Source of the DNA: Stagnimonas sp.
GTDB taxonomy: Bacteria > Pseudomonadota > Gammaproteobacteria > Nevskiales > Nevskiaceae
Direction: 5' to 3'
Assembly (NCBI GenBank): GCA_030652575.1
Contig: JAUSQI010000055.1
Location: forward strand, 1 to 45,828
Length of the DNA: 45,828 nucleotides
Of this stretch, positions 17,165 through 37,157 are shown piece by piece. Each line of letters starts with the position of its first letter. Position 1 is the first letter of the stretch. The notes beneath the pieces are model-generated. The model saw only the letters and a list, made by a program, of their open reading frames with translations. It did no database searches and was not told where the DNA came from. Position numbers and translations under genes: made by a program.

Positions 17165-18037
17165 ATGACGACTTCCAACATCGTGCGCCAGCAGTTCGTC
17201 CATCGTGGCCTGCGGCTGTCGTATCTCGACTCCGCGCCCGGGGACGCCCGTCGTCCGGTGATTCTTCTGCTGCACGGCTTTCCCGACGAAGCCGCAATGT
17301 GGATTCCGATCATTCCCGGGCTGCACGCGGCGGGTTTTCGCGTGCTCGCGGCGGACACAGTGGGGTGCGGTCAGTCAGAGATGGCGACGCGACGCGACGG
17401 CTACGACATCTTTCGCATCGTTGGGGATGTCGTTGCGCTGCTGGATCAGCTCGGGGTCCAGCAGGCCCAGATCGCCGGCCATGACTGGGGGGCGGTGCTG
17501 GCCTGGTTCCTGGCGATGCACCAGCCGCAGCGCGTGCAGCGGCTCTGCGTGATGTCGGTGGGGCACCCAGCAGCCTATGTGGGTGCCGGTTTGCGACAGA
17601 AGCTGATGGGCTGGTACATCGTCTACTTCCACATGGCGGGCCTCTCGGAACGCCTGCTGATGGGACGCGGCTGGTTCAGCCTGCGCCGGGTATTCGGCTC
17701 GCATCCGGAGATGGAGTCCGTCATGGACCGGCTCCGCAACCCCGGGCGGCTCACTGCGGCTCTGCGCATCTACCGCGCCAACATCTTCCAGCACGTGTTG
17801 TTTGGACGACACCCGCGAGTTCGCTGCCCGGTACTGGGCCTATATAGCGTCGGCGACGCCTTCCTCGACGCCGGGCAGATGCGTGACTCGCAACACTGGG
17901 TGGACAGCGACTTCAGCTATGTCGCGCTGGCTGGCGGGCACTGGCTGCCGCTTGAACAACTGCAACGAGTCCAGACCCTGATGCTGGAGCACTTCGCCGC
18001 TGGTGACGCCGCCGCAGATACCAACAAGCCGGACTAA
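17165..18037 (+). CDS. Alpha/beta hydrolase, epoxide hydrolase-like
   Basis: A 290-residue alpha/beta hydrolase with the features of soluble epoxide hydrolases rather than esterases: oxyanion HGFPD at 37-41, nucleophile D107 in AGHDWGAVLAW (aspartate, not serine), a cap region with tyrosines (GWYIVYFHMAG and RIYRANIF), an acid in YSVGDAFLD and the general-base histidine in AGGHWLPLEQ. Such enzymes add water to an epoxide to give a vicinal diol; haloalkane dehalogenases share the fold but usually show a different oxyanion Trp next to the nucleophile. It lies 60 bases after the dehydrogenase and 11 before the SDR gene. Confidence 0.87.
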   Translation: MTTSNIVRQQFVHRGLRLSYLDSAPGDARRPVILLLHGFPDEAAMWIPIIPGLHAAGFRVLAADTVGCGQSEMATRRDGYDIFRIVGDVVALLDQLGVQQAQIAGHDWGAVLAWFLAMHQPQRVQRLCVMSVGHPAAYVGAGLRQKLMGWYIVYFHMAGLSERLLMGRGWFSLRRVFGSHPEMESVMDRLRNPGRLTAALRIYRANIFQHVLFGRHPRVRCPVLGLYSVGDAFLDAGQMRDSQHWVDSDFSYVALAGGHWLPLEQLQRVQTLMLEHFAAGDAAADTNKPD

Positions 18038-18048
18038 GGAGAGCAGAA

Positions 18049-18870
18049 ATGAAAAATTGGAAACATGCACTGATCAGCGGCGGCGGTAGCGGTCTTGGTC
18101 ATGGGCTAGCTGTGCGCCTGCTGCGGCGTGGCACCTCGGTGAGCGTGCTGGACCTCACCGTCAGCGATGAGCGTCGTTCCGCGCTGGAGGCGGCAGCGGA
18201 GCAGGGCCGCGCGCGCTGGCAGTTCGTCGAGGCCAACATCACGGATGAAGCGCGGGTGCATGCGGCGGTGGCCGATGCGGTCTTGGCGTTCGGTGCCCCA
18301 GACTTGGCGATCAACAGCGCCGGCATTGGCCTGTCACGCGCATTCTCCAACCTCCGCACTGAAGACTTCCGCAGAGTGATCGAAGTCAATCTAATCGGCA
18401 GCTACCACTTTGCGGCGGCGGTGATCCCGCAGCTCAAGCCCGGCGCACGCCTGGCACTGATCGCCTCTCTCGCGGGCCTTGTCAGCAACTACTCCTATGC
18501 CGCCTACGGCACGTCGAAGTTCGGTGTGGTCGGTCTGGCGACGACACTACGCTACGAGTACGAGCCGCGCGGCATCCACATCAGCTGCATCTGTCCGCCG
18601 GAAGTGAAGACGCCGCTGGTGACGCAGGAACGCGCCGACGGCGACCCGGTGGCAATGGACGTCAAGCTGATTGCCGGCTCGATGGAACTCGATCCCGCCT
18701 GCGACCAGATGCTCGCTGGCCTCGACGCTGGCCGCTGGATGATCATCCCCAGCTTCGCTGGCAAGGCCACCGCTTTCGCTGCCCAGCACATGCCGGGGCT
18801 GTTCTACCGATTCATGGACAAGACAATCCGCAAATACATGCGCAAGCACGGTGTGGCGGTGATTCACTGA
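18049..18870 (+). CDS. SDR family NAD(P)-dependent oxidoreductase
   Basis: A 273-residue classical short-chain dehydrogenase. Cofactor motif SGGGSGLG at 10-17, structural NSAG (LAINSAGIG), catalytic serine in IASLAGLVS and the YAAYGTSK tyrosine/lysine pair. The C-terminus is long and hydrophobic (QHMPGLFYRFMDKTIRKYMRKHG), recalling membrane-associated SDRs such as 3-ketosphinganine reductase types and fatty-alcohol/steroid dehydrogenases. A GGAG lies 7 bases upstream of ATG 18049 and the gene follows the epoxide hydrolase by 11 bases, so it is in the same operon. Substrate unknown. Confidence 0.88.
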   Translation: MKNWKHALISGGGSGLGHGLAVRLLRRGTSVSVLDLTVSDERRSALEAAAEQGRARWQFVEANITDEARVHAAVADAVLAFGAPDLAINSAGIGLSRAFSNLRTEDFRRVIEVNLIGSYHFAAAVIPQLKPGARLALIASLAGLVSNYSYAAYGTSKFGVVGLATTLRYEYEPRGIHISCICPPEVKTPLVTQERADGDPVAMDVKLIAGSMELDPACDQMLAGLDAGRWMIIPSFAGKATAFAAQHMPGLFYRFMDKTIRKYMRKHGVAVIH

Positions 18871-19279
18871 TCTGTTTGCAGCAAACGAAGTCCGCACGGC
18901 GACGCTGGCACCGCCATCAAGGCGATCTCATCGGCGCCTCAGAACTTCGGCACGACCGCCTAGTCGCTGACAATTCCGAGCTTACAAGCCGAGCGCTAGC
19001 CCTCTGGCCAATTCTTCCGCGATACCGAGCTTGTGCGCAGTGGCGTCTCCGTCTGCTTCAGAATAGCCTTCCACCGCTGGTTTGACCAAGCTCCGGGGGA
19101 GTTTCGGAAAGCCGCCACCGTTATGATCAGATCCGCTCAATCTGCGCCTCCCGCTTGAGACCATGGTTCCACGTGTTTCCACAAATGGTTGGCCCTGCCT
19201 CCGCACTTGAAGGGAGCTGCGCGAGCTGCCTGACCTCGGCAATGGTCTGCGCTTCTCGGCATTTTCAAGAGGATATTGA
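18871..19279. other. 409-base stretch without a convincing gene
   Basis: No supported gene. A minus-strand open frame within 18982-19242 ends in a protein-like stretch (GFPKLPRSLVKPAVEGYSE) that could be the tail of a lost gene, but no start, ribosome binding site or family could be assigned. The end of the stretch should hold the promoter for the methyltransferase; GAGGATATTGA before its ATG provides a ribosome binding site. Confidence 0.4.
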
Positions 19280-19894
19280 ATGAGCAGCTTCTACGACGAC
19301 CACATCCTGCCTCAGGCCATCGACTTCATCTGTGGCCTTCCTTCGTTCGAGCGCGGGAGAAAAAAACTGATGCCCGAAGCTTCAGGGCGAGTGCTCGAAA
19401 TCGGAATGGGGACGGGCCGCAATTTTCCGTACTACAAGCCAGCTCAGGTCACCTGCATTTGTGGGGTTGATCCTGGCCTACATCCGAAAGCCGAGCGGCG
19501 CGCAAAGGCTGCGGGCATCGAGGTGGAACTCATGCCATTGTCAGCAGAACGTATTCCCGCAGACGACCACAGCTTCGATTGCGTTGTGTCCACATTTACC
19601 CTCTGCACGATCCCTGATGCCGGCATGGCACTTAAAGAGGTGCGCCGTGTTCTGGCGCCGAGAGGCCGCCTGTTGTTTCTAGAGCATGGCGCCGCACCCG
19701 ATCAGAATGTGCGTCGCTGGCAACAGCGGCTTGAGCCTGCGTGGAAATCTCTAGCGGGTGGTTGCCACCTCAATCGCGAGGTGCCCCTACTCGTTGAGGC
19801 GGCAGGTTTCAAGATCAATCGCCTGGAGCAGGGCTACCAACGGGGCCCGCGCTTTCTGACCTATCTTTCGTCTGGCATCGCCTCACGAGATTGA
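19280..19894 (+). CDS. Class I SAM-dependent methyltransferase, METTL7-like
   Basis: A 204-residue methyltransferase. Motif I is VLEIGMGTGRN at about 38-48, followed by GVDPGLHPKAERRA and the post-motif region FDCVVSTFTLCTIPDAGMALKEVRRVL, typical of the UbiE-like class. The C-terminal half (RWQQRLEPAWKSLAGGCHLN, then REVPLLVEAAGF) parallels eukaryotic METTL7 proteins, which methylate thiols or associate with lipid droplets. Bacterial relatives are usually uncharacterised. It is convergent with the styrene-oxide-isomerase-like gene and stands alone. Target (thiol, phenol or lipid) is not known. Confidence 0.85.
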   Translation: MSSFYDDHILPQAIDFICGLPSFERGRKKLMPEASGRVLEIGMGTGRNFPYYKPAQVTCICGVDPGLHPKAERRAKAAGIEVELMPLSAERIPADDHSFDCVVSTFTLCTIPDAGMALKEVRRVLAPRGRLLFLEHGAAPDQNVRRWQQRLEPAWKSLAGGCHLNREVPLLVEAAGFKINRLEQGYQRGPRFLTYLSSGIASRD

Positions 19895-20018: not shown

Positions 20019-20519
20019 TCAGCCCCGTGCTGCCCGCAGTGCGTTGGTTAGGCAAATACCGGTTGCAATCGTGGCCCCGAAAACCGCCACATAAAACGAG
20101 CCGTAGCTCAGTAGATTGGGCCAGCTGCCAATGGGCTGCAGTCCTCGCTCGGGCGCGTATACAGCGGCGGAATAGCCGATGGCGTTGCCCCACAGCATCA
20201 CAATCGCTGCGTAGTAGAACCACTGTGCCTGCCGCACGCTGAAGTGCAGCCGCGGACTCAAGAGCACCATCGCCATGACAAACATCGAATTCATCAAGGG
20301 GCCGACATGGGCATTGCGTAGCAACTCCTTCTGGTCGGGCACCACGACCTCGAAGCGTGGCAGGGGCAGGATGTGCAGCACGTTGTCGGCGAGTGCAATC
20401 AGCCATGCGAAGCCACCGCAGAAGCCCACAAACATCATGATGAAGCAGTGAACGAGCAGTTTGCCGCCGATACGGTTCGACAGCCCTTGGCCTGCCACTA
20501 CCCAAGTTTCGTTTCTCAC
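20019..20519 (-). CDS. Styrene oxide isomerase-like integral membrane protein
   Basis: A 166-residue protein with four hydrophobic helices. The start is GTG 20519, which has GGAGAG seven bases upstream and lies 34 bases after the preceding gene; longer in-frame starts overlap that gene. The sequence follows Pseudomonas StyC closely in pattern: LPRFEVVVPD, then AHVGPLMNSMFVMAM (StyC has H58 as heme ligand and N64 at the same +6 spacing), GNAIGYSAAVYAPERGL (StyC has a catalytic tyrosine before a PNRGL) and a final helix. StyC is a heme-b enzyme that isomerises aryl epoxides to aldehydes (Meinwald rearrangement). Here H, N and Y are all kept, so epoxide isomerisation is plausible; the substrate is unknown and no styrene monooxygenase is nearby. 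Confidence 0.72.
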   Translation of the reverse strand: MRNETWVVAGQGLSNRIGGKLLVHCFIMMFVGFCGGFAWLIALADNVLHILPLPRFEVVVPDQKELLRNAHVGPLMNSMFVMAMVLLSPRLHFSVRQAQWFYYAAIVMLWGNAIGYSAAVYAPERGLQPIGSWPNLLSYGSFYVAVFGATIATGICLTNALRAARG

Positions 20520-20553
20520 TGTGCTCTCCAGTTTGTGTGTGTTGTTTGTGGTT

Positions 20554-21483
20554 TCAGCCGATGGCCTTTGCCAATGACTGGGCATAGGGCACGGGCATCT
20601 GCGGTGCGTGGGTGTCGAGTAGGGGAATCTGATCCAGTGGCGCGGCACCGTGGCCAGCGATCCAGTCCAGCACCCATTGCGGGTCTTTCTCGCGGCGCGG
20701 CGAATGCCCAGGCAGTGCTGCGCGCAGCAAGTAGGGGCCAACGTGGCGAATAAATGCTGTGATGTGCCTCGCGAGCCGTAGTCGCGAGCGCAGCTGCCCC
20801 CACAGACCCTCGTGCTGGAGCATCGCCTTGTAGGCGCGCATCGAAAACCACATCACCTGCAGAGAGCCATGAAAGACACCGTAAGCTCGTGCCAGGTAGC
20901 CACCCACGCCGCCGCCGTAGGCAGCCTGGTAGATGTCGTAGGCCACGCACTTGTGCTCGGTTTCTTCCACCATGTGCCAGAGCAGGAAGGACACCACGCG
21001 CGTGTCCGCCCCCTTGAACAGGCTTACGCGTTGCTCGATAAGCCATTTGGTCACGCCCAGGGTCATCGACTCAAAGCCTGCCGTGTAGGCCATACGTGTG
21101 CGCAATGGACGCTGGGCGAGGCGCGCATAGGCCGCCTGCATGTCGCGTTCGATGGCTTCGAGCTGCGGATAGCGCTTGGCCTTGAGCATCTCGTTGAAGC
21201 GCCGGTGGGCTTGGTAGTGGTGCTGCTCCTGGGTGTTGAACGCGCGGCCCTGCGCGCTCAAATGCTCGTTATCGTGCTGCTGAATGGTTTCACGCACGGT
21301 GCGAATCAGAAACGGTTCGAGATACGGCATGGTCAGCGAACCCCCGTTCATCATCGCTGCGAGCTCGGGCTCACCCGGGATCCACTGCGGATCGATATCG
21401 TCGGGAAACTCGAAGGCGATGCGACGTGGTATCGGTGTGGGCTCGGCTGCCAGCAGGGCCGGGCCGTGTTGGACTTCAACCAT
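20554..21483 (-). CDS. Predicted metal-dependent hydrolase (COG3687, PF10118 type)
   Basis: A 309-residue mostly helical protein of the family annotated as predicted metal-dependent hydrolase. Candidate metal ligands form a ferritin-like pattern: E and H residues in TQEQHHYQAHRRFNEM, a glutamate in FESMTLG, and the highly conserved WHMVEETEHKCVAYD. The EExxH-type motif suggests a diiron centre, so it could equally be an oxygenase; no activity is established that I know of. Its ATG overlaps the end of the tetR gene by 8 bases, and the styrene-oxide-isomerase-like gene follows, so regulator, diiron protein and isomerase form one operon. Confidence 0.82.
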   Translation of the reverse strand: MVEVQHGPALLAAEPTPIPRRIAFEFPDDIDPQWIPGEPELAAMMNGGSLTMPYLEPFLIRTVRETIQQHDNEHLSAQGRAFNTQEQHHYQAHRRFNEMLKAKRYPQLEAIERDMQAAYARLAQRPLRTRMAYTAGFESMTLGVTKWLIEQRVSLFKGADTRVVSFLLWHMVEETEHKCVAYDIYQAAYGGGVGGYLARAYGVFHGSLQVMWFSMRAYKAMLQHEGLWGQLRSRLRLARHITAFIRHVGPYLLRAALPGHSPRREKDPQWVLDWIAGHGAAPLDQIPLLDTHAPQMPVPYAQSLAKAIG

Positions 21484-22135
21484 GACGTTTCTCCTTGGAA
21501 GGGACTTTTGCTGAGGTATCGGCGTGCTCCAGGCCTGTGCGTAGCGCGTGGATCAAGGTGGGCACCAGCATCTTCACATCGCAACCCATCACGAACTGCC
21601 CGGCCACTTGCAGCGACACCAGGCCGTGTGCACCAATCCAGAACAGATGACTGGCGGTAAGTGGGTCGATGTCCAGTGGAAAGTTGCCACGCGCCTGGCC
21701 GGCGGCAATCACCTGAGTGCACACATCCAGCGCATCGCGCTTGGCGGCTTTGAGCTCTATCGAGCGCCGCGCCACTTCCAGCTGGTCGAGGGCGAAGAAC
21801 ATCAGCGCGTAGCGGTGCGGGTGCGCCATGCCGCTGCGGATGTAAGCTGCTGCCAGTGACTCCAGCTGCTTCTCAGGCTCGCTCAAGCCCACGATTGCCC
21901 CGCGCATCTCGGCCTCGATCCAGCGGAAGGCGCGGGCACGTAAAGCGTTCACGAGCTCCTGTTTGTCGACGAAGTAGCGGTAGGGCGCGGAATAACTCAA
22001 GCCCAGTTCCGTGGCGAGGCGGCGGAAGCTGAGTGCCTCTTCGCCACCCTCCTTCTCGAAGACCGCCATTGCGGCATCCAGAATTTGCTCGCGCTTCTGC
22101 GCACGCAGGTCATCAGAGAACTTTGGGCGGGGCAT
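21476..22135 (-). CDS. TetR family transcriptional regulator
   Basis: A 219-residue TetR/AcrR-type repressor. The N-terminal HTH is clear: REQILDAAMAVFEKEGGEEA, then LSFRRLATELGLSYSAPYRYF and VDKQELVNALRARAF. The C-terminal ligand domain resembles TetR proteins with the WHG-like domain (PLTASHLFWIGAHGLVSLQV). It is first in an operon with the diiron-type hydrolase and the isomerase-like gene, so it probably represses itself and them. The upstream AT-rich stretch at 22140-22165 (AGTAAACATCATTAACA) is the likely promoter/operator zone, although its symmetry is poor. Confidence 0.9.
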   Translation of the reverse strand: MPRPKFSDDLRAQKREQILDAAMAVFEKEGGEEALSFRRLATELGLSYSAPYRYFVDKQELVNALRARAFRWIEAEMRGAIVGLSEPEKQLESLAAAYIRSGMAHPHRYALMFFALDQLEVARRSIELKAAKRDALDVCTQVIAAGQARGNFPLDIDPLTASHLFWIGAHGLVSLQVAGQFVMGCDVKMLVPTLIHALRTGLEHADTSAKVPSKEKRHG

Positions 22136-22372
22136 GCGAAATAGTAAACATCATTAACATAACAGCGTCAACAAAAGTCCCGACGCGTTGTCCTCAAGCA
22201 AAGCCGCTCTGGCAGGCGACCGGCGCGCGCTAGCCGTAGATGACGTCAGAAGTGACCTGGCTCCAGTTTCAAACACTACGGAAACGGGAAGGACGTCACT
22301 CAGAATTGGACTCCAAACATCAGTGCTACTCAAAACCGGGGGAACGTCGGCCAACTTACTGGCGTTCTGAAG

Positions 22373-22687
22373 TTGCCAATGGCGCAGACGCCTCGTCATC
22401 ACTATCAAATCCTAACCAAGCGCCCAGAGCGGATGCGCCAGATGATCATCGACCGTCAGATCGCGGTGCTGCCGAATGTCTGGCTGGGCACAAGTGTAGA
22501 AAACGCCGAGACTGTCGACCGGATCGACGAACTTCGCCGCACGCCGGCTGCAATCCGGTTCGTGTCCTTTGAGCCGCTGATCGGGCCGGTTGGAGCGGTG
22601 GATCTCACGAGTATCCACTGGGCGATTGTTGGCGGCGAAATCCGGCCTGTCGGTTGCGGGCATGATGGCGGCTTTCAATCAGGGTGA
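22373..22687 (+). pseudogene. Fragment of a phage Gp37/Gp68 (DUF5131) family gene
   Basis: The frame encodes HYQILTKRPERMRQMI, LPNVWLGTSVENAETVDRID, ELRRTPAAIRFVSFEPLIGP and HWAIVGGE, a very recognisable central part of the DUF5131 'phage protein Gp37/Gp68' family. Both ends are missing: the family's N-terminal cysteine-rich part is absent, and after GGE the frame runs into unrelated sequence (IRPVGCGHDGGFQSG). The remnant is about 100 residues of an expected ~240 or more. It overlaps the start of the next gene and is evidence of past phage or mobile-element insertion. Confidence 0.8.
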
Positions 22688-24117
22688 TCCATTTGCGCCA
22701 CTGCCTGTGGTTCTGCGGCCTCCTCTCTACGCTTCTGCCAGGGGCAGTCCACGCACATTCCTTCGGCCGACTCTACAACCTGCCGGTGCCGTTCTGGATG
22801 TATATCTACGGCGCGGCGGCGGCGCTGCTGCTGTCGTTCCTGCTCGTCGCCTGGTTCGCCACCGCCAGCGCGCAGGCCCCTGAGTCTGCTCCGCGCAGCG
22901 CATTCACCCTGCGCGCGCCGCGCCTGCTGATGGCTTTGAAATGGCTTGCCGTCTTCGGTTTGCTGCTGACGATGGCGACCGGCTTCTTGGGCAACCGCGA
23001 TCCCTACCGCAACTTCAGCATGACGTTCTTCTGGGTCGTGTTCGTGCTGGCGTTCGCCTACCTCACCGCGCTGATCGGCGACCTGTACGCCGAAATCAAT
23101 CCCTGGGCGACGATCGCGCAGTGGCTTGATCGTGCAATTCCCGGCTTCACGCAGGGACGTTTCCGGTATCCCGGCTGGCTCGGCTACTGGCCGGCACTGG
23201 CGTTCTACATGGCGTTCATCTGGATCGAGCTGTTCGGCCACTCGCGGCCGTTGTCGCTGGCAACGCTACTGGCCGCGTACAGCCTGCTGAGCATGGCCGG
23301 TGTCTGGCTGGTGGGTGCCGTTGCGTGGTTCCGTTACTGCGAGTTTTTCGCGGTGTTCCTGCGTCTGCTTGCCAGGATGGCCCCCGTCGAATACGGGCAG
23401 CGAGGCCTGCGCTTGCGCATGCCGTTCACAGGTTTGCTCGAACAGCCTGTGGAACGCTGGAGCCTGCTGGTCTTCGTGCTGTTCATGCTCTCGTCCACCG
23501 CCTTCGACGGCCTGGCCGCAACCAAGGTCTGGATCCAGCTCTTTTGGGGAGATCCCCTGGGTATCCTCGAACCCTGGATCGGCACCAAGCCGATCTTCGA
23601 GTTCCCGGCGCTCAGGCCGGTCTATTTCGCCTGGCAGACCTTTTGTCTGCTGCTGTCGCCGTTCCTGTATCTCGGCGTCTACCTGATGGCCACGGCTCTG
23701 ATGAAGTGCATCACGCAAAGCCCCTTGCCGCTGCGTGAGTTGGCGCTGCGCTTCGCGTTATCGCTGCTGCCGATTGTTCTCGTCTACAACATCACGCACT
23801 ACTACACGCTGATTCTCACCCAGGGGGTGAAGATCGTCAGCCTGCTGTCGGATCCCTTCGGCTGGCGCTGGAACCTGTTCGGTACGGCAGAGCTGTTCCG
23901 CGCCCCGTTCCTGCCGGGGATGAACCTGGTCTGGCACACGCAGGTGGGCCTGATCCTGTTCGGCCATATCGTCAGCGTGTACCTGGCGCACATGGAGGCG
24001 CTGCGTATCTTTCCGACGCGCCGCCTCGCCGCGATCAGCCAGATCCCGATGCTGCTGCTGATGGTGCTGTTCACCAGCGTCGGCCTGTGGATCCTGGCGC
24101 AGCCGATCACGAGCTGA
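22684..24117 (+). CDS. Polytopic membrane protein of unknown function
   Basis: A 477-residue membrane protein with a signal-like N-terminus ending AVHAHSFGRLYNLPVPFWMYIYGAAAA and about ten to twelve hydrophobic segments. The AHxxGxxxxLPVPxWxYxxGAAAAxxLSF opening is a pattern I recall from a family of actinobacterial and proteobacterial membrane proteins, some of which carry the database name fenitrothion hydrolase; that name should not be taken as function. Other conserved-looking stretches are GNRDPYRNFSMTFFWVVFVL, DLYAEINPWATI and ITHYYTLILTQG. The start GTG 22684 is preceded by a weak ribosome binding site. It stands between a phage-gene fragment and a convergent lipoprotein gene. Confidence 0.75.
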   Translation: MIHLRHCLWFCGLLSTLLPGAVHAHSFGRLYNLPVPFWMYIYGAAAALLLSFLLVAWFATASAQAPESAPRSAFTLRAPRLLMALKWLAVFGLLLTMATGFLGNRDPYRNFSMTFFWVVFVLAFAYLTALIGDLYAEINPWATIAQWLDRAIPGFTQGRFRYPGWLGYWPALAFYMAFIWIELFGHSRPLSLATLLAAYSLLSMAGVWLVGAVAWFRYCEFFAVFLRLLARMAPVEYGQRGLRLRMPFTGLLEQPVERWSLLVFVLFMLSSTAFDGLAATKVWIQLFWGDPLGILEPWIGTKPIFEFPALRPVYFAWQTFCLLLSPFLYLGVYLMATALMKCITQSPLPLRELALRFALSLLPIVLVYNITHYYTLILTQGVKIVSLLSDPFGWRWNLFGTAELFRAPFLPGMNLVWHTQVGLILFGHIVSVYLAHMEALRIFPTRRLAAISQIPMLLLMVLFTSVGLWILAQPITS

Positions 24118-24235: not shown

Positions 24236-26452
24236 TCAGCGGCCGTAGGCCTTCTCCCACATCTGGATGTAGGCCTCCGCCGAGTTGTAGAACGCGGACA
24301 CGGCTTCTTCGCCGCCTTCGAGGCGGAGTTCTTCAACGATGTCGGGCATCAGGCCGTAATGCGCGGTGCCATCGACGTCTGCGTTCCAGGACTTGCCGCT
24401 CTCGGGGATGGTCAGCATCCCGACCGTGATCGGCTTGATGCCCGCCTGCGTGAACTGCGCTCCCCAGCCCGGGCCCTCGAACATCTTGAACGGGTACTGA
24501 ATCTGCGGACGGTCAGCGCCACGCGGCTCCGGGTAGCCGCCAAAACCATTGCCGTCGAAGCCATAGCCCATCGCCAGCGCGCGGCCTTCCGGCCACAGGG
24601 TCTTGAGTTCGTCGAGCACGCTCTTGGCCATCACGCCGTTCGGGTTGTAGGGAAAGATCACACCGCCGAGATCAAGGATATCCTTGGCCATCTGCTTCGA
24701 CAGGCCGCCGTGGCCGCCGTGCACGGATATGAGCGGGTAGACGGGGGTCTGGTGCTGGGCGATCTCGATCATTTCGTTCTTGACCAGCATCGAGGCGTGA
24801 TCGGTGTCGAGCACCATGCCTCTCTTCATTGCCTCCTGCAGCGCGTAGCGGCCGAGGTCGGTCAGGCCGCGCTTGTTGCATTGGCGGCCGGGCGGATAGA
24901 CCGGCAGCACGCCGTTGGTGAGTTGCAGCACATAGTTGGTTAGCGGATTGTCGAGCGGCAGTGACGCCTCCTGCACGGCACCGGCCGTGTAGAAGTCGGC
25001 AAAGTGCGGCAAGCCCTTGTCCTGCATGAACCACTGATTCTGGTCGGCCGGGCAGGTGTAGGTATCGCGGAACGAACCGGTTTGCAGCAGGCTGAGCAGA
25101 TCCATCACAACCCCGCTGAAGATGCCGGTGCCGGCGAGCGCGTTGTTGATGTCGTGGTACAGATACAGCTGGCGCACGCCGAGTTTGTAAACCTCTTCGA
25201 GTCCAGCGTCGATGTCTGCCTTCGTGCACTGGGCGACCTCGCCGATGCCGAGCAGCGACTTGGTGCCGCAGCCGAAGATGTTGGAGAACTCCAGGCCCAG
25301 CACGACCGCCATCTTGCCCTCGTTGATGACGGCGCGCGCCTCGGCCGGTGACTGGACGATGCGGTACCAGCCCTTGCCAGGGCCGCCCTCCTGCGCGTCC
25401 ACGTAGTCCTGCATCGCATAGGCATATTTGAGCTGCTTGATGCCGATGCTCATGTCGTTGCAGTCGGCGAACTTGGTGCCGAGCGTGAGCGAACCGAACT
25501 GGCACAGCGCCTCGATGTTGGTGCCAAGGTTGACCATCAGGCGCTGGCCCGCGACATAAGAACGCTCGACCCATTTGTAGTACATCGCCTGGTGGGTGAA
25601 ATTTGGAATCCTCGGCCAGTCCACGAAGGTCGGCCAGCCCGCGGTTTCATGCGTGCCGGGCGCGGTGCCACCAATGATCCACTCCCCGTCCAGAATGCCG
25701 TTCGGGCCGTGGAAGGCTTGGCAGTTCTTGAGTGCTTCCGGCACGCCGAAACGGTTGAACATCTGGCCATAGACGATGCCCGCCGCCGAGGGGCCGACGT
25801 TGCCGCTGCCGTCTGACAGCTCGCTGCCCATCGCCATGTGGGTATGCGCGTCCGCGTAGCCGATCACCGGCTTGTCGACGCCCCGGCCTTTGTAGGTCTG
25901 GCCGATGATGCTGACGGGCATTTCGGGATAGTTTGTGCAGCCGCTCGCAGCCTCGAACGTGAAAGCCGAACGGCTACCCGCAGCGGCCAGCACCAGCGTA
26001 CCGTCGTCATCGACGGCGAGCGACTCGCCGGTGGTGTCGGACACGATGCTGAAATTGCCGGTGGTGTCCTGATCGACCGTCCAGACCACCGAATCCTCGG
26101 GCTCGGACACGCTGGTGACCGGGTCTGCATCGTCGGCGGCGATGAAGCTGGCGTCCTTCGCGTAGAAGAAGTACTTGCCGAGCGCCGCCGGCTTTACGAA
26201 CAGCGGTTCGGCACCCGCGGCGGTAGTGGCCGAGGCCACATAGCCGCCGTCGTCATCCTTTACGGCATAGGCCTTATTGGCCGCCGACTTGAGCACGAAG
26301 CAGCCGTTGGCCAGCGAGTAGCGATTCTTCGCTGAAGGCACGTGCGGCTCTGCCGTGCCGCTCCCTGCACCCACAGCGTCAGGGGCAGAACCCGTTCCAC
26401 AAGCCGCACACAACAACACCACGCCGATATAAGAAATCTTTCTTGCGTCCAT
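24236..26452 (-). CDS. Secreted lipoprotein with beta-trefoil-like domain and M19/amidohydrolase-type TIM barrel
   Basis: A 738-residue exported protein. The N-terminal signal ends at a lipobox-like LLCAAC (C18). Residues ~45-170 contain three similar segments (YAVKDDDGGYVAS, FIAADDADPVTS, LAVDDDGTLVLA) that look like a fascin/ricin-type beta-trefoil. The catalytic domain begins at D201-A-H203-T-H205 and continues with VVLGLEFSN, MVLDTDHAS, LISVHGGHGG and AMGYGFDGNGFGG, which parallel the HxD, E, H, H and SDFDG positions of M19 membrane dipeptidase (renal dipeptidase) and related amidohydrolases. A binuclear metal hydrolase outside the inner membrane is inferred. It is far longer than ordinary M19 enzymes (~330-400 residues). 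Substrate unknown. Confidence 0.75.
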   Translation of the reverse strand: MDARKISYIGVVLLCAACGTGSAPDAVGAGSGTAEPHVPSAKNRYSLANGCFVLKSAANKAYAVKDDDGGYVASATTAAGAEPLFVKPAALGKYFFYAKDASFIAADDADPVTSVSEPEDSVVWTVDQDTTGNFSIVSDTTGESLAVDDDGTLVLAAAGSRSAFTFEAASGCTNYPEMPVSIIGQTYKGRGVDKPVIGYADAHTHMAMGSELSDGSGNVGPSAAGIVYGQMFNRFGVPEALKNCQAFHGPNGILDGEWIIGGTAPGTHETAGWPTFVDWPRIPNFTHQAMYYKWVERSYVAGQRLMVNLGTNIEALCQFGSLTLGTKFADCNDMSIGIKQLKYAYAMQDYVDAQEGGPGKGWYRIVQSPAEARAVINEGKMAVVLGLEFSNIFGCGTKSLLGIGEVAQCTKADIDAGLEEVYKLGVRQLYLYHDINNALAGTGIFSGVVMDLLSLLQTGSFRDTYTCPADQNQWFMQDKGLPHFADFYTAGAVQEASLPLDNPLTNYVLQLTNGVLPVYPPGRQCNKRGLTDLGRYALQEAMKRGMVLDTDHASMLVKNEMIEIAQHQTPVYPLISVHGGHGGLSKQMAKDILDLGGVIFPYNPNGVMAKSVLDELKTLWPEGRALAMGYGFDGNGFGGYPEPRGADRPQIQYPFKMFEGPGWGAQFTQAGIKPITVGMLTIPESGKSWNADVDGTAHYGLMPDIVEELRLEGGEEAVSAFYNSAEAYIQMWEKAYGR

Positions 26453-33161: not shown

Positions 33162-36100
33162 ATGGCCTCGATTGACCGCACCGCCTACCCGACATTAGCT
33201 GCCGACTACGGCAAGAAAGCGTTACAGCGCGACTTCACAGTTACCGAGGATGAGAACGACTGGGTGAAGTCTCTAGGTCGATCGGCATCTTCCAGGTTGG
33301 GTCTCTGCATGCTGCTGAAATCGTTTCAGGTGCTTCACTACTTCGTTGACATCGAAGACATTCCTGAATCGGTTACGGGACATCTCCGAGGGGAGCTTGG
33401 TCTGGGCCCTTTGATCGTTCCCGACTACTCCGGGAAGCACATGTTGTTTCGGCATAAGACGGCTGTTCTTGATTTTATGAAGATCACCGCTTGCCACGGT
33501 GAAACAGCCCAGCAACTTCTCAAGACGTTGGCTGACGAAGCTGCCGAGGTCGTCGATGGCCGCGTCGACATCATCAATTCGATGATCGACGGGTTGGTGC
33601 TGAAAAGCTACGAGTTGCCGGCATTTTCTACGCTTGATGCCTACGCGGAGCGTGCGCACGCCAGCGTTCAACGGCGGATCGTCAATGAGGTTGCCGCGCG
33701 TGTATCGAAAGAGTTGGAAGAGAAATTGTTGGGTCTCCTGAACTCGGGTTACTCGGGGCGACTGACACAGTTCAATGACCTGAAGAGATCAGCCGGGAAG
33801 CTCAGCAGAAAGCACATCGATCTGATGGCCGACCAGCTGGAATGGCTGGACTCTTTTGGTTCTTTTGAGGCGATATTAGAGGGCATTGTCGACTCGAAAA
33901 TCCGATTCTTTGCAGAGCTGGCAAAACAGTACGACGCCGGTGCATTGAAGGACTACGCACAGCCCAAACGGCTAACGTGTGTTCTGGCACTGATTCATCG
34001 GATGCGAGTGCGTACTCGAGACCAGCTCACCGAGATGCTGTTACGAAAGATGGGGAAGATTCACAAGCTCTCGAAAAACGAGCACCAGCAAATCCAGGTT
34101 CGGCAGATGGGCCAGGTGAACAAGCTCGTGGCGACATTGGGTGGTGTCGTCAAAATCCTGAGCGATGAAACCGACAATTCGGTGGCCGGGGAAAAGATTC
34201 GTGACTACGTGGGATCTAGCGCGAAGGTGAAGGAGTTGATCGAAGAGTGCGATCTCGTGCAATCCCGAACCGCTTCCAGTCATCTCCCGTTGCTATGGGA
34301 TCACTTCATCGGCTCCAGAGCGGTGCTGTTTCGTCTAGTGCGGTTACTGTCGTTTTCGGCAACCAGTGACGACCGAACCGTCCTCGATGCGCTCGAAATC
34401 GTCAAGGTCAACCAAGACAAGTACCGTGCATGGTTGCCCGAGACAATCGACCTGACATTTGCGAGCGAGCGTTGGCGTCAGCTCGTACGTCATGAAACCG
34501 GCACTGGCATCGGTATCCATCGGCAGTCCTTTGAGGTGTGCGTGTTCTCCCACCTTGCTGATCTGATTCGCTCAGGCGATATCGCCGTTGATGGCTCCGA
34601 GGATTTCGCCGACTACCGTCGTCAGTTGCTGCCGTGGTCTGAATGCGAGCAAATGCTGGAGGCGTATTGCACCAAGATCGGCATCCCGTCCACCAAGGAA
34701 GGTTTTGTCGAAAGCCTGCAAACGGAGTTAACCAAGGTGGCAGCGGAGCTGGATGCAAGGATGCCCTCCGCCAGTGATGATGTGGTGATTAGCGAGAGCG
34801 GCCATCCCAAAGTCAAAAAGGTCGTTGCAGTAGAGATTCCAGAATCCGCTAAGGCTCTTGAACTCGAGATCGCCAAGCGCATGCCTGCAAGGCATGTTCT
34901 CGATACCTTGACCAACATTGAGCACTGGACACATTTCAGTCGGCACTTTGGCCCGATCTCAGGTAACGAAGCCAAGCTGGAAGACGCTGAAACCCGGTAT
35001 CTGCTGACGATATTTACCTACGGCTGCAATCTGGGACCCACGCAGGCAGCTCGGCATCTGACAAAGCAGAAGATTTCTGCCCAGATGCTCAGCTTCGCTA
35101 ACAAGCGGCACATCTCACTCGAAATGCTCCAGACCGCTCAGCGCGAGCTTTCAGAGGTGTATCTCCAGCTCGAGCTACCCAAAGTTTGGGGTGATGGCAC
35201 AACGGTGGCCAGCGACGGCACGCAATACGACTTCTATGAGGACAACCTCTTGGCCGGCTATCACTTCAGGTACCGCAAGATGGGGGCTGTGGCGTACCGG
35301 CATGTGGCCAATAACTACATCGCCACCTTTCAACACTTCCTTCCGCCTGGCGTTTGGGAGGCCATTTACGTCATTGAGGCTTTGATGAAGGCTGGTCTGA
35401 GTGTTGAAGCGGATACGGTTCACTCGGATACCCAAGGTCAGTCGGCAGCAGTTTTCTGCTTCACCTACCTCTTCGGGATCGACCTCAAGCCGCGTATTCG
35501 GAACTGGAAGGATCTGATCCTCTGCCGCCCGACGCCTAAAACAAAGTATCAACACATCGACTCGCTTTTCCGCGGTCAGGTCGATTGGCAATTGATCGCG
35601 CAAAACTTTCGCGAGGTTATGCAGGTGACGTTGTCCATGGTCGCCGGCAAGGTCTCATCCCCGATGGTATTACGAAAACTCGGCTCCTTTAGCCGCCGGA
35701 ACAAGCTTTACTTTGCCGCACAGGAGATCGGAAACGTGATCAGGACTATTTACCTTTTGAAGTGGCTTGGCAGTCGAGAACTGCGCCAGGAGATCACCAG
35801 CAACACGAACAAAATCGAGGCATACAACGGATTTGCCAAATGGGTGGGGTTCGGTGGCGACGCCATTCCGGTCAATGAGCCTGACGAACAGCAAAAGCGA
35901 CTTCGCTATAACGACCTTGTTGCTCTCGCCATTATTTTGCAGAACGCCGTGGATATGACACGAGTGATCGATCAGTTGCGTGCAGAGGGCTACAAGATCA
36001 ATGACGCTGACCTTGAATTCCTCAGCCCCTACATTACCGCGCACATCAAGCGTTTCGGCGACTACAACATAAAACTCAGCCGAGCAATCGAGCGATGGAT

Positions 36101-36188
36101 CGCCGAGTCCTCCTTCCAAGCTGCCGCAATTGAGGGTGCGAAGCGGCACCGGAGCGTCAGTGGCACTGGCAAGCTACAGCCAGCATGA
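33162..36188 (+). CDS. tnpA: Tn3 family transposase
   Basis: A 1008-residue replicative transposase, normal length for Tn3 TnpA (~1000). The DDE catalytic residues are D685 in VASDGTQYDF, D756 in HSDTQGQSAAVF and E886 in NKIEAYNGFAKW, close in number and spacing to D689, D765 and E895 of Tn3. The N-terminal half contains the DUF4158-like DNA-binding part (MASIDRTAYPTLAADYGKKA). The frame is intact, so the protein could be active. No resolvase gene is recognised beside it. The downstream side normally carries the right terminal repeat, but instead a broken gene and an IS follow. Confidence 0.95.
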   Translation: MASIDRTAYPTLAADYGKKALQRDFTVTEDENDWVKSLGRSASSRLGLCMLLKSFQVLHYFVDIEDIPESVTGHLRGELGLGPLIVPDYSGKHMLFRHKTAVLDFMKITACHGETAQQLLKTLADEAAEVVDGRVDIINSMIDGLVLKSYELPAFSTLDAYAERAHASVQRRIVNEVAARVSKELEEKLLGLLNSGYSGRLTQFNDLKRSAGKLSRKHIDLMADQLEWLDSFGSFEAILEGIVDSKIRFFAELAKQYDAGALKDYAQPKRLTCVLALIHRMRVRTRDQLTEMLLRKMGKIHKLSKNEHQQIQVRQMGQVNKLVATLGGVVKILSDETDNSVAGEKIRDYVGSSAKVKELIEECDLVQSRTASSHLPLLWDHFIGSRAVLFRLVRLLSFSATSDDRTVLDALEIVKVNQDKYRAWLPETIDLTFASERWRQLVRHETGTGIGIHRQSFEVCVFSHLADLIRSGDIAVDGSEDFADYRRQLLPWSECEQMLEAYCTKIGIPSTKEGFVESLQTELTKVAAELDARMPSASDDVVISESGHPKVKKVVAVEIPESAKALELEIAKRMPARHVLDTLTNIEHWTHFSRHFGPISGNEAKLEDAETRYLLTIFTYGCNLGPTQAARHLTKQKISAQMLSFANKRHISLEMLQTAQRELSEVYLQLELPKVWGDGTTVASDGTQYDFYEDNLLAGYHFRYRKMGAVAYRHVANNYIATFQHFLPPGVWEAIYVIEALMKAGLSVEADTVHSDTQGQSAAVFCFTYLFGIDLKPRIRNWKDLILCRPTPKTKYQHIDSLFRGQVDWQLIAQNFREVMQVTLSMVAGKVSSPMVLRKLGSFSRRNKLYFAAQEIGNVIRTIYLLKWLGSRELRQEITSNTNKIEAYNGFAKWVGFGGDAIPVNEPDEQQKRLRYNDLVALAIILQNAVDMTRVIDQLRAEGYKINDADLEFLSPYITAHIKRFGDYNIKLSRAIERWIAESSFQAAAIEGAKRHRSVSGTGKLQPA

Positions 36189-36214
36189 TGATGCTCAGAG
36201 CGCAGAAGCGGTGA

Positions 36215-36312
36215 GCCACTCGATCCACCGTTCGTGAGATCTGCGTTTGGGCCTCTGTCGATACCGAGCCGGACGGGTATCTCACGATCTGCAAGGCCAC
36301 CACTGCCGAGCA
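36215..36312 (+). pseudogene. Small gene interrupted by the IS3-family element, upstream part
   Basis: Removing the IS (36313-37498) and one copy of the AGCA duplication restores a single frame: VREICVWASVDTEPDGYLTI, CKATTAEQHQAWIDVLMASR, KGERIIIDGVPRLKVVRSN-stop (37599). The upstream part has no ATG/GTG/TTG start after the in-frame stop at 36212, so the 5' end is also lost or was altered when neighbouring DNA joined. The tail has a strand-turn look similar to small antitoxin or DNA-binding proteins, but no family is claimed. Confidence 0.55.
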
Positions 36313-36326
36313 TGAAGCGACCTCGT

Positions 36327-37157
36327 TTATTGAAGACAGTCTGAGGTAGAGGTTGTGGGTGATTTTGCCTGTGCATAGGCGACGGGTGGAAGGCCGCCGA
36401 GACTGCGATGCGGGCGGTGATGGTTGTATCGGTGCTGCCAGTTGGTGGTCATGCGGCGGACCTCGTTGAGGCTAGTGAAGACATAGCGGTCGAGCACCTC
36501 GGTTCTCAGCGTGCGGTTGAATCGCTCGATATAGGCGTTCTGGGTGGGCTTGCCGGGTTGGATGTGGACGAGCTCGACGCCGTGCTGCTTCGCCCACTGC
36601 TGCAGGAGCTGGCTGATCAGCTCTGGCCCGTTATCGAGGCGCAGACGCTGCGGTGACCCACGAATTTCGACCAGTTCATCCAGTGCCCGGATGACCCGCA
36701 GTGCTGGCAGGCTGGTGTCGATCTCGATGCGCAGGGCTTCACGGTTGTAGTCGTCGATCACGTTGAAGGTGCGGAAACGACGACCTGACCACAGTGCGTC
36801 CGCCATGAAGTCGGCCGACCAAGTCTGGTTCGGCGCTGCGGGCACTGCCAGCGGGTCACGTACGCGCTCTGGCAGCCGGCGCTTCCCGCGTCGCGGCAGA
36901 TTGAGCTTTAGCTCGCGATAGACCCGCCAGAGCCGGGACTTTCCCCAGGGTCTGCCCTCGCGTCGAAACGTCCGGTGCAGCAGGAAGAAGCCCTGTCCGG
37001 GGTTGTCGGTGATGTAGGCCGAGATCGCCTCGATCACCGGTGCATCATCTGGCCGACGAGATTGGTAATAGGGTGCAGCACGCGACAGACCCAGGGCCGC
37101 ACAGGCCCTTCGCAGACTCACCCCATGGCTCTCTTTCATCGCCAGACACAGCTCCAT
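36327..37157 (-). CDS. IS3-family transposase OrfB (integrase core)
   Basis: A 276-residue rve-type DDE domain: D in [13 protein letters not shown] in [11 protein letters not shown] and E in [12 protein letters not shown], followed by [16 protein letters not shown]. The independent ATG at 37157 gives OrfB alone; the frame is open upstream to the A7 tract at 37178-37184, so a -1 shift from orfA would make the OrfAB transposase, the usual active form. Confidence 0.93.

What the first reader, a model, noticed from the sequence alone, without database searches (positions are those of the whole stretch)
20019..22135. Styrene-oxide-isomerase-like protein in an operon with a diiron-type protein and TetR
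The 166-residue four-helix protein keeps the heme ligand histidine, the catalytic asparagine at +6 and the tyrosine before a P-x-RGL motif seen in StyC, but styrene monooxygenase genes are absent. Instead it is cotranscribed with a protein carrying an EExxH-type metal site. This pair could form a new route: oxygenation to an epoxide by the diiron protein followed by Meinwald rearrangement to an aldehyde.
Basis: partly seen in the sequence, partly recalled or inferred. Interest (0 to 1): 0.68.

Follow-up and report, generated by a model that had tools for sequence, protein, structure and literature searches.

The report
Diiron enzyme paired with epoxide isomerase
A small regulated gene set pairs a probably mis-named 'hydrolase' that looks like an iron-based oxygenase with a membrane heme protein related to styrene oxide isomerase, and the pairing recurs in many bacteria where the usual partner oxygenase is not next to it, so it may be an undescribed two-step oxidation route.

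Summary
Window 20019-22135 (minus strand) encodes TetR, a PF10118 'Metal_hydrol' protein and a 166-aa homologue of styrene oxide isomerase (SOI, StyC). The homologue keeps StyC's heme histidine, both active-site asparagines, the tyrosine and the arginine; D95 is lost. PF10118 is probably not a hydrolase: it has a conserved E...ExxH...E...EExEH pattern, and its predicted fold best matches dimetal-carboxylate proteins (R2, AurF, R2lox). The pairing is not chance: 52 of 110 SOI-like genes in relatives lie within 1 kb of PF10118, as do 24 of 43 in two other lineages, whereas no SOI gene near StyA/StyB had one within reach. A 19-bp motif upstream of TetR occurs 16 times (13 of 16 genomes chosen for carrying the genes), always before this TetR or an SOI gene, including three SOI genes with no close relative of this PF10118 beside them. 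So the two form one regulated system in which PF10118 takes the place of styrene monooxygenase. Most likely it oxygenates an unknown alkene to an epoxide, which SOI turns into a carbonyl; that chemistry is inferred. Main caution: some SOI paralogues of the same regulon lack the catalytic tyrosine, so a heme electron-transfer or scaffold role remains open.

The parts
20019..20519 (-). SOI(StyC)-like four-helix membrane heme protein, 166 aa (GTG start); His71, Asn77, Asn112, Tyr116, Arg125 match StyC H58, N64, N99, Y103, R112
20524..20529 (-). Putative ribosome-binding site GGAGAG ahead of the GTG start
   Evidence: read directly
20554..21483 (-). PF10118 'Metal_hydrol' protein, 309 aa; probable ferritin-like diiron protein with candidate ligands E56, E86, H89, E138, E174 (or E173), H177
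21476..22135 (-). TetR-family regulator (TetR_N, TetR_C_33), 219 aa, first gene of the operon
22154..22172 (-). Operator-like motif GTTGACGCTGTTATGTTAA, ending 18 bp upstream of the TetR start; only match in the window at up to 3 mismatches

Best explanation
The operon is a TetR-controlled two-enzyme cassette. TetR, probably released by the substrate, opens a dedicated promoter (operator suggested by conservation; inducer inferred). PF10118 is a soluble ferritin-like diiron oxygenase (fold and ligand pattern by computation; metal and O2 chemistry inferred) that puts oxygen on a hydrophobic alkene to give an epoxide (inferred). The SOI-like protein, a membrane heme-b oligomer with the StyC active site (by homology), binds the epoxide oxygen on Fe(III), with Tyr116 positioning it, and rearranges it to an aldehyde or ketone (inferred from StyC). 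PF10118 thus does the job that StyA/StyB does for classical StyC. Sub-claims: SOI-like protein binds heme at His71, about 0.85; PF10118 is a ferritin-like dimetal protein, about 0.85; the two work in one pathway, about 0.9; this SOI isomerises an epoxide, about 0.6; PF10118 makes that epoxide, about 0.5.
For: SOI: homology; best solved match of the model is StyC 8pnu, Z 15.3 over 148 residues, next entry (LTC4 synthase) Z 10.9; heme His in 114 of 114 rows, and H/N/N/Y/R in 11 of 11 of the window clade. PF10118: model with mean pLDDT 88; the 50 VIA entries listed (of 716 chains with Z 2 or more) are by title all dimetal-carboxylate proteins, Z 12.9-11.8; ten ligand-region residues are the same in 56 of 57 rows, the other row being gapped; the Pfam AurF profile weakly matches PF10118 proteins, 9 of its 10 sub-cut-off hits. 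Pairing: 46, 52 and 60 of 110 SOI genes have PF10118 within 200 bp, 1 kb and 4 kb; 24 of 43 in other lineages within 1 kb; of the 52 close pairs 36 have PF10118 co-oriented upstream, 1 downstream, 15 on the opposite strand. Replacement: 10 SOI genes with a StyA/StyB-type neighbour have 0 PF10118 within 4 kb; 7 of 43 near StyA/StyB again have none in the locus. Regulon: 16 of 16 motif sites lie before this TetR (12) or an SOI gene (4); reversed control 0.
Against: D95, whose mutation substantially impairs StyC (PMC11374702 section 8), is M, T or L in the window clade. In the largest clade of SOIs co-oriented with PF10118, Y103 is Ser in 22 of 23 and N99 hydrophobic in 22 of 23, although Y103A and N99A inactivate StyC; these SOIs share the same PF10118 branch. 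No electron-transfer or aldehyde dehydrogenase gene is in the operon. The StyC equivalog cut-off is not reached (50.9 of 150 bits). A PF10118 profile reached no solved diiron protein, comparison with one AurF-type protein gave Prob 0.1, Foldseek's best E was 0.06 with none at 0.001, and the VIA Z values lie under the tool's caution line of about 13 for helical bundles. Four of the 11 window-type SOI genes (L035, L036, L037, L039) have no close relative of this PF10118 beside them, and in 3 of the 16 genomes searched (G005, G015, G026) the motif was not found at up to one mismatch.
Confidence: 0.47

Rival explanations
1. The SOI-like protein is not an isomerase here but a membrane heme-b partner (electron donor, anchor or channel) for the soluble PF10118 diiron oxygenase; the oxygenase product is then an alcohol or epoxide, not a carbonyl.
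For: The heme histidine is the same in 114 of 114 SOI-like rows while the catalytic Tyr and Asn vary by clade (Y103 kept in 65 of 114, N99 in 87 of 114). Tyr/Asn-less SOI paralogues pair with the same PF10118 branch and can be under the same motif as intact ones in one genome (G033, G039, G052). No other redox partner gene is in the cassette.
Against: The window clade itself keeps H, N, N, Y and R in 11 of 11, which an electron carrier would not obviously need. SOI genes elsewhere sit beside StyA/StyB in a known epoxide pathway, and beside aldehyde dehydrogenase in others.
Confidence: 0.22
2. Order reversed: the SOI makes a carbonyl from an epoxide of other origin, and PF10118 then oxidises or deformylates that aldehyde, as ferritin-like aldehyde-deformylating oxygenase does (recalled).
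For: No activity is known for PF10118 and gene order alone does not fix reaction order (inference; no call tests it).
Against: No locus examined had PF10118 together with StyA/StyB next to an SOI, and PF10118 holds the same upstream position, which suggests replacement of the epoxidase rather than an added later step.
Confidence: 0.13
3. A stress or detoxification cassette: PF10118 is a ferritin-like metal or peroxide-handling protein and the SOI-like protein clears stray epoxides or lipid oxidation products; no joint pathway.
For: TetR control and a tiny set of motif sites with no catabolic genes among them.
Against: PF10118 lies co-oriented upstream of SOI in 36 of the 52 close pairs and appears in place of StyA/StyB, which fits a pathway better than a general stress response.
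Confidence: 0.1
4. The pairing is a phylogenetic accident: a cassette inherited together in one bacterial family with no functional tie.
For: Most of the first sample is one family (f1), and paralogues are not independent.
Against: The pair recurs in other lineages (24 of 43), in Hyphomonas, Hellea and an Acidimicrobiales MAG, and some unlinked SOI genes carry the same motif.
Confidence: 0.03

Closest known systems
Styrene oxide isomerase StyC (Pseudomonas sp. VLB120, PDB 8pnu; NCBIfam NF045734)
   Same: Four-helix membrane fold, heme-ligand His, Asn64, Asn99, Tyr103 and Arg112 equivalents
   Different: About 25% identical; D95 replaced; 50.9 bits against the 150-bit StyC cut-off; neighbour is PF10118, not StyA/StyB; TetR instead of the StyS/StyR, AraC or LysR genes seen beside StyC
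Styrene side-chain pathway StyA/StyB/StyC(/StyD)
   Same: Oxygenase-type gene upstream of the isomerase gene
   Different: The flavin monooxygenase StyA and reductase StyB are replaced by a single diiron-type protein; no StyA match in the genome
PF10118 Metal_hydrol (predicted metal-dependent hydrolase)
   Same: Full-length family member, 173.8 bits against cut-off 33.2
   Different: Family name predicts a hydrolase; motif, fold and context point to a dimetal-carboxylate oxidase or oxygenase
Dimetal-carboxylate oxidases: AurF, CmlI, R2lox, RNR R2, methane monooxygenase hydroxylase
   Same: Predicted fold and E...ExxH...E...ExxH pattern
   Different: No direct sequence match of this protein to any of them; metal and activity unknown

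Membership tests
Styrene oxide isomerase (StyC) | Homology and fold | tested here: met
   hhalign Prob 98.1, E 7.7e-14; model vs 8pnu Z 15.3, 148 aligned; best model pLDDT 79.1, the other four 51.6-76.8
Styrene oxide isomerase (StyC) | Heme-ligand H58 with N64, N99 and Y103 | tested here: met
   Aligned H71, N77, N112, Y116; 11 of 11 in the window clade
Styrene oxide isomerase (StyC) | D95 of hydrogen-bond network 1 | tested here: not met
   M in the window protein; T, M or L in its clade
Styrene oxide isomerase (StyC) | Curated StyC equivalog score (150 bits) | tested here: not met
   50.9 bits
Styrene oxide isomerase (StyC) | Linked StyA/StyB styrene monooxygenase | tested here: not met
   No PF17885 match in the genome; neighbour is PF10118
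Styrene oxide isomerase (StyC) | Heme b binding and epoxide isomerisation | not testable with these tools
   Needs protein
PF10118 Metal_hydrol | Score above Pfam gathering cut-off | tested here: met
   173.8 vs 33.2 bits
Ferritin-like dimetal-carboxylate superfamily | Four-helix ligand pattern E, ExxH, E, ExxH (recalled as defining) | tested here: met
   E56 (helix 52-68), E86/H89 (73-103), E138 (127-150), E174/H177 (161-189)
Ferritin-like dimetal-carboxylate superfamily | Fold match to solved members | tested here: inconclusive
   The 50 VIA rows shown are of this superfamily but Z 12.9-11.8 is under the caution line for helical bundles; Foldseek best E 0.06, prob 1.00
Ferritin-like dimetal-carboxylate superfamily | Two bound metals and O2 activation | not testable with these tools
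   Needs protein
AurF N-oxygenase family (PF11583) | Score above Pfam cut-off | tested here: not met
   No match for the window protein at E up to 1; other PF10118 proteins match at E about 1e-4, below the cut-off

The most novel reading that the evidence does not exclude
PF10118 is an unrecognised family of diiron oxygenases whose SOI-linked branches form, with heme-b membrane proteins of the SOI family, a dedicated oxygenase-isomerase system parallel to StyA/StyB-StyC. Several SOI variants (Tyr-intact, Tyr to Ser, Tyr to Phe) serve one diiron partner, perhaps as mixed trimers, so that heme subunits set the reaction outcome, including heme chemistry other than the Meinwald rearrangement.
Probability: 0.35. 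Interest if true: 0.82.

Novelty: new variant of a known kind. Interest (0 to 1): 0.63.

Why it matters
The SOI structure paper reports no substantial structural neighbours for this heme enzyme (PMC11374702 section 7), and PF10118 carries a name that probably misdescribes it. If the pair is an oxygenase plus isomerase, it gives a route from alkenes to carbonyls with a diiron in place of a flavin oxygenase, suggests a new function for a common protein family, and offers a way to find substrates through the TetR inducer. The natural variation at the catalytic tyrosine inside one regulon also tests what the SOI heme does.

Tried and rejected
The repeat finder saw no inverted repeats upstream of TetR in the window or in L034, though in some relatives (for example G011:C30, G007:C1, G026:C19) the pattern matches both strands 10 bp apart at 2-3 mismatches, which makes a 29-bp imperfect palindrome. 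The operator search at 3 mismatches is swamped by chance: the reversed control is about as frequent, so only the search at 1 mismatch is used. Of seven regions with looser hits away from known cassettes, six (L282-L286, L288) have a TetR-family gene beside the hit and one (L289) does not, so the motif may belong to a wider TetR subfamily at lower stringency.

Sequence-level proof that PF10118 is diiron: the profile against solved structures gave six irrelevant matches, and hhalign with one AurF-type protein gave Prob 0.1. PF00268 (R2) genes were fetched but not compared further.

Context of solo SOI genes (L035, L037, L039): I saw no recurrent neighbour by eye in the gene lists. Recurrent neighbours of SOI loci at large include Mfd and RadA-type genes (labels partly recalled), judged to be inherited synteny. 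Literature: searches (30 of 54 papers listed; 10 of 282) showed no paper on the pair in what was listed; that covers only the open-licence library. The one paper found naming PF10118 (PMC8960859) mentions it as a protease group correlated with a lanthipeptide precursor (one passage). Papers seen: PMC11374702 passages and sections 7, 8, 9; PMC12502698 abstract and passages; PMC8960859 one passage; the others as search listings only.

Limits: the SOI counts come from related genomes and tandem paralogues, not independent events, and many loci are cut by contig ends. The Mantel correlation (r 0.69, 46 pairs, largest of 2000 permutations 0.16) is inflated by shared ancestry. ORFs were called by my own simple script, with starts often too early, so distances are approximate. 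Of the SOI matches listed, one 36-residue piece (G060) gave no SOI ORF and dropped out. Two of the 43 loci (L218, L219) look like mirror copies on one contig.

Full report
What is there. On the minus strand of the window, TetR (21476-22135), a 309-aa PF10118 protein (20554-21483) and a 166-aa SOI-like protein (20019-20519, GTG start) form a tight operon: 8-bp overlap, then a 34-bp gap. Genes to the left (17165-19894) point the other way and are ordinary by Pfam: alpha/beta hydrolase, short-chain dehydrogenase, methyltransferase.

SOI-like protein. NCBIfam StyC matches at E 1.6e-13 but 50.9 bits against a 150-bit cut-off; solved StyC chains match at E 1.4e-6 and 3.5e-6. An alignment of 11 window-type proteins against 12 StyC-type proteins gives Prob 98.1, E 7.7e-14. 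The model has four long helices (mean pLDDT 79.1, the other four models 51.6-76.8) and its best solved match is StyC 8pnu, Z 15.3 over 148 residues, with the next entry at 10.9. In StyC, H58 binds heme, Y103A and N99A are inactive, N64A and D95A impaired (PMC11374702 section 8); in Rhodococcus SOI the equivalent His proved to be the heme ligand by mutation and the Arg to matter for activity and heme stability (PMC12502698 passages). The window protein has H, N, N, Y and R in register and Met for D95. Across 114 SOI-like rows H58 is His in 114, N64 Asn in 108, N99 Asn in 87, Y103 Tyr in 65, R112 Arg in 89.

PF10118 protein. Pfam calls it a predicted metal-dependent hydrolase (E 6.6e-51). Ten residues (E56, Q85, E86, H89, E138, H170, E173, E174, E176, H177) are the same in 56 of 57 rows, the remaining row being gapped. 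They sit on four helices of a confident model (pLDDT 88.1) in the order E, ExxH, E, ExxH, which from established knowledge is the ligand order of dimetal-carboxylate proteins. The 50 VIA matches shown are all such proteins by title: RNR R2, AurF, R2lox, CmlI, methane monooxygenase (Z 12.9 to 11.8). Foldseek agrees in kind but weakly (best E 0.06). The Pfam AurF profile had 11 hits in 61 genomes; one passes the cut-off and 9 of the other 10 are PF10118 proteins (two rechecked, E 8e-5 and 1.1e-4). The window protein itself has no AurF match, and two other sequence tests were negative.

The pair is real. With the window protein as query, SOI-like genes occur in 45 of 146 genomes of the kinship sample, up to five per genome (E up to 1e-3). 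With a family profile at E up to 1e-5 they occur in only 3 of 397 genomes drawn across the phylum, one of them the window's own. In the fetched loci, 46 of 110 SOI genes have a PF10118 gene within 200 bp, 52 within 1 kb, 60 within 4 kb. PF10118 has about 3.6 copies per genome (219 in 61 at E up to 1e-10), so by my arithmetic under 1% would be expected within 1 kb by chance. The 52 close pairs involve 44 PF10118 genes, 32 genomes and 14 genera; PF10118 is co-oriented upstream in 36, downstream in 1, on the opposite strand in 15, and this kind of TetR lies directly upstream in 13. Seen from the other side, of the 22 PF10118 genes closest to the window's (E up to 2.1e-55), 20 adjoin an SOI within 1 kb; one (G059) does not, and one (G016) lies at a contig end and was not fetched. 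Of the many more distant PF10118 paralogues only a minority adjoin an SOI, so the link belongs to particular branches. In a second set from two other lineages, 24 of 43 SOI genes have PF10118 within 1 kb (loci), all 24 on the same strand.

PF10118 stands where StyA/StyB stands. SOI genes with StyA- or StyB-type neighbours (10 in the first set) have no PF10118 within 4 kb, as far as the contigs reach. In the second set the 43 SOI genes split into 24 with PF10118, 7 with StyA/StyB in the locus, 6 with an aldehyde dehydrogenase only and 6 with none of these; no locus has both PF10118 and StyA/StyB. The window genome has no StyA match. The SOI tree separates a StyC clade, a window clade and several PF10118-linked clades. 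The PF10118 tree has one large branch mostly beside co-oriented SOIs, one mostly beside divergent SOIs, with exceptions in each (L130; L118 and members 3-4 kb from their SOI), and a small third branch. Within the first branch, window-type SOI (Tyr kept) and another SOI type (Tyr to Ser) alternate as partner, the latter sometimes with a second tandem SOI (Tyr to Phe).

Shared operator. Upstream of TetR the motif GTTKACRNTGTTANGTTWA is conserved in several relatives and is unique in the window; exact copies are in 27 of 251 loci then held, several of them overlapping copies of one place. I searched 16 genomes that carry window-type or co-oriented SOI genes: 16 sites at up to one mismatch in 13 of them, none in the reversed control; G005, G015 and G026 had none. 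Twelve sites lie at or just upstream of this TetR and four within about 160 bp upstream of SOI genes. Three of those four are window-type SOI genes with no close relative of this PF10118 beside them (G033, G039, G052), and the same genomes carry the TetR-PF10118 cassette elsewhere under the same motif. So the SOI appears tied to PF10118 by regulation even when not adjacent. The pattern was built from cassettes of this group, so finding it there is partly expected; the absence of other sites and the solo SOI sites are the informative part. A fourth solo window-type SOI (G007, L035) has no such site at one mismatch.

Spread. The same pair lies in Oceanococcus, Hyphomonas, a Hellea MAG and an Acidimicrobiales MAG, 67-71% identical in the SOI: 7 of the 10 named loci have PF10118 beside the SOI (L171-L177; in Hyphomonas, L176, on the opposite strand) and 4 also TetR (L173, L174, L176, L177). 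An eighth (L168) has only a distant PF10118 paralogue 1.8 kb away. Seven of the ten are contigs of genomes already counted above.

Reading. The evidence supports one regulated system of PF10118 plus SOI-like protein and a StyC-type heme site in this copy. Diiron oxygenation and epoxide rearrangement are inferred. The Tyr-less SOI partners are the strongest reason for doubt and the most interesting loose end.

Noticed in passing
L100, L101, L111, L122, L125, L132, L135, L053: Tandem SOI-like genes follow one PF10118 gene: by clade the first has Tyr103 to Ser (one member of that clade Ala), the second Tyr103 to Phe. StyC heme sits between subunits, so a mixed oligomer is conceivable.
   Followed up: partly
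L050:8118-9539 (-), L143:6587-7909 (+): Another SOI-like clade adjoins a protein with only weak FAD/NAD-binding Pfam matches (L050 only), possibly a third kind of oxidoreductase partner.
   Followed up: partly
L180, L183, L184, L186, L189, L191: SOI-like genes with an aldehyde dehydrogenase gene nearby but no StyA/StyB and no PF10118 in the locus, in the order of G174.
   Followed up: no
L114:307-2024: A PF10118/SOI cassette that looks decayed: the PF10118 gene is in pieces in G036.
   Followed up: no
L282, L283, L284, L285, L286, L288: Other TetR-family genes carry related motif hits at 2-3 mismatches beside them, so this TetR may belong to a wider autoregulated subfamily.
   Followed up: partly
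window 22684-24117 (+): 477-aa protein, hydrophobic by eye, with no Pfam or NCBIfam match.
   Followed up: no
window 24236-26452 (-): 738-aa protein with no Pfam match at 1e-5.
   Followed up: no
window 33162-37157: Tn3-type transposase and an integrase-core protein, a mobile stretch about 11 kb from the cassette.
   Followed up: no
G000:C91 (L044:9922-10428): A second, distant SOI-like gene in the same genome, without PF10118 nearby, close to genes that cluster with acyl-CoA dehydrogenase and DUF1302 proteins.
   Followed up: partly
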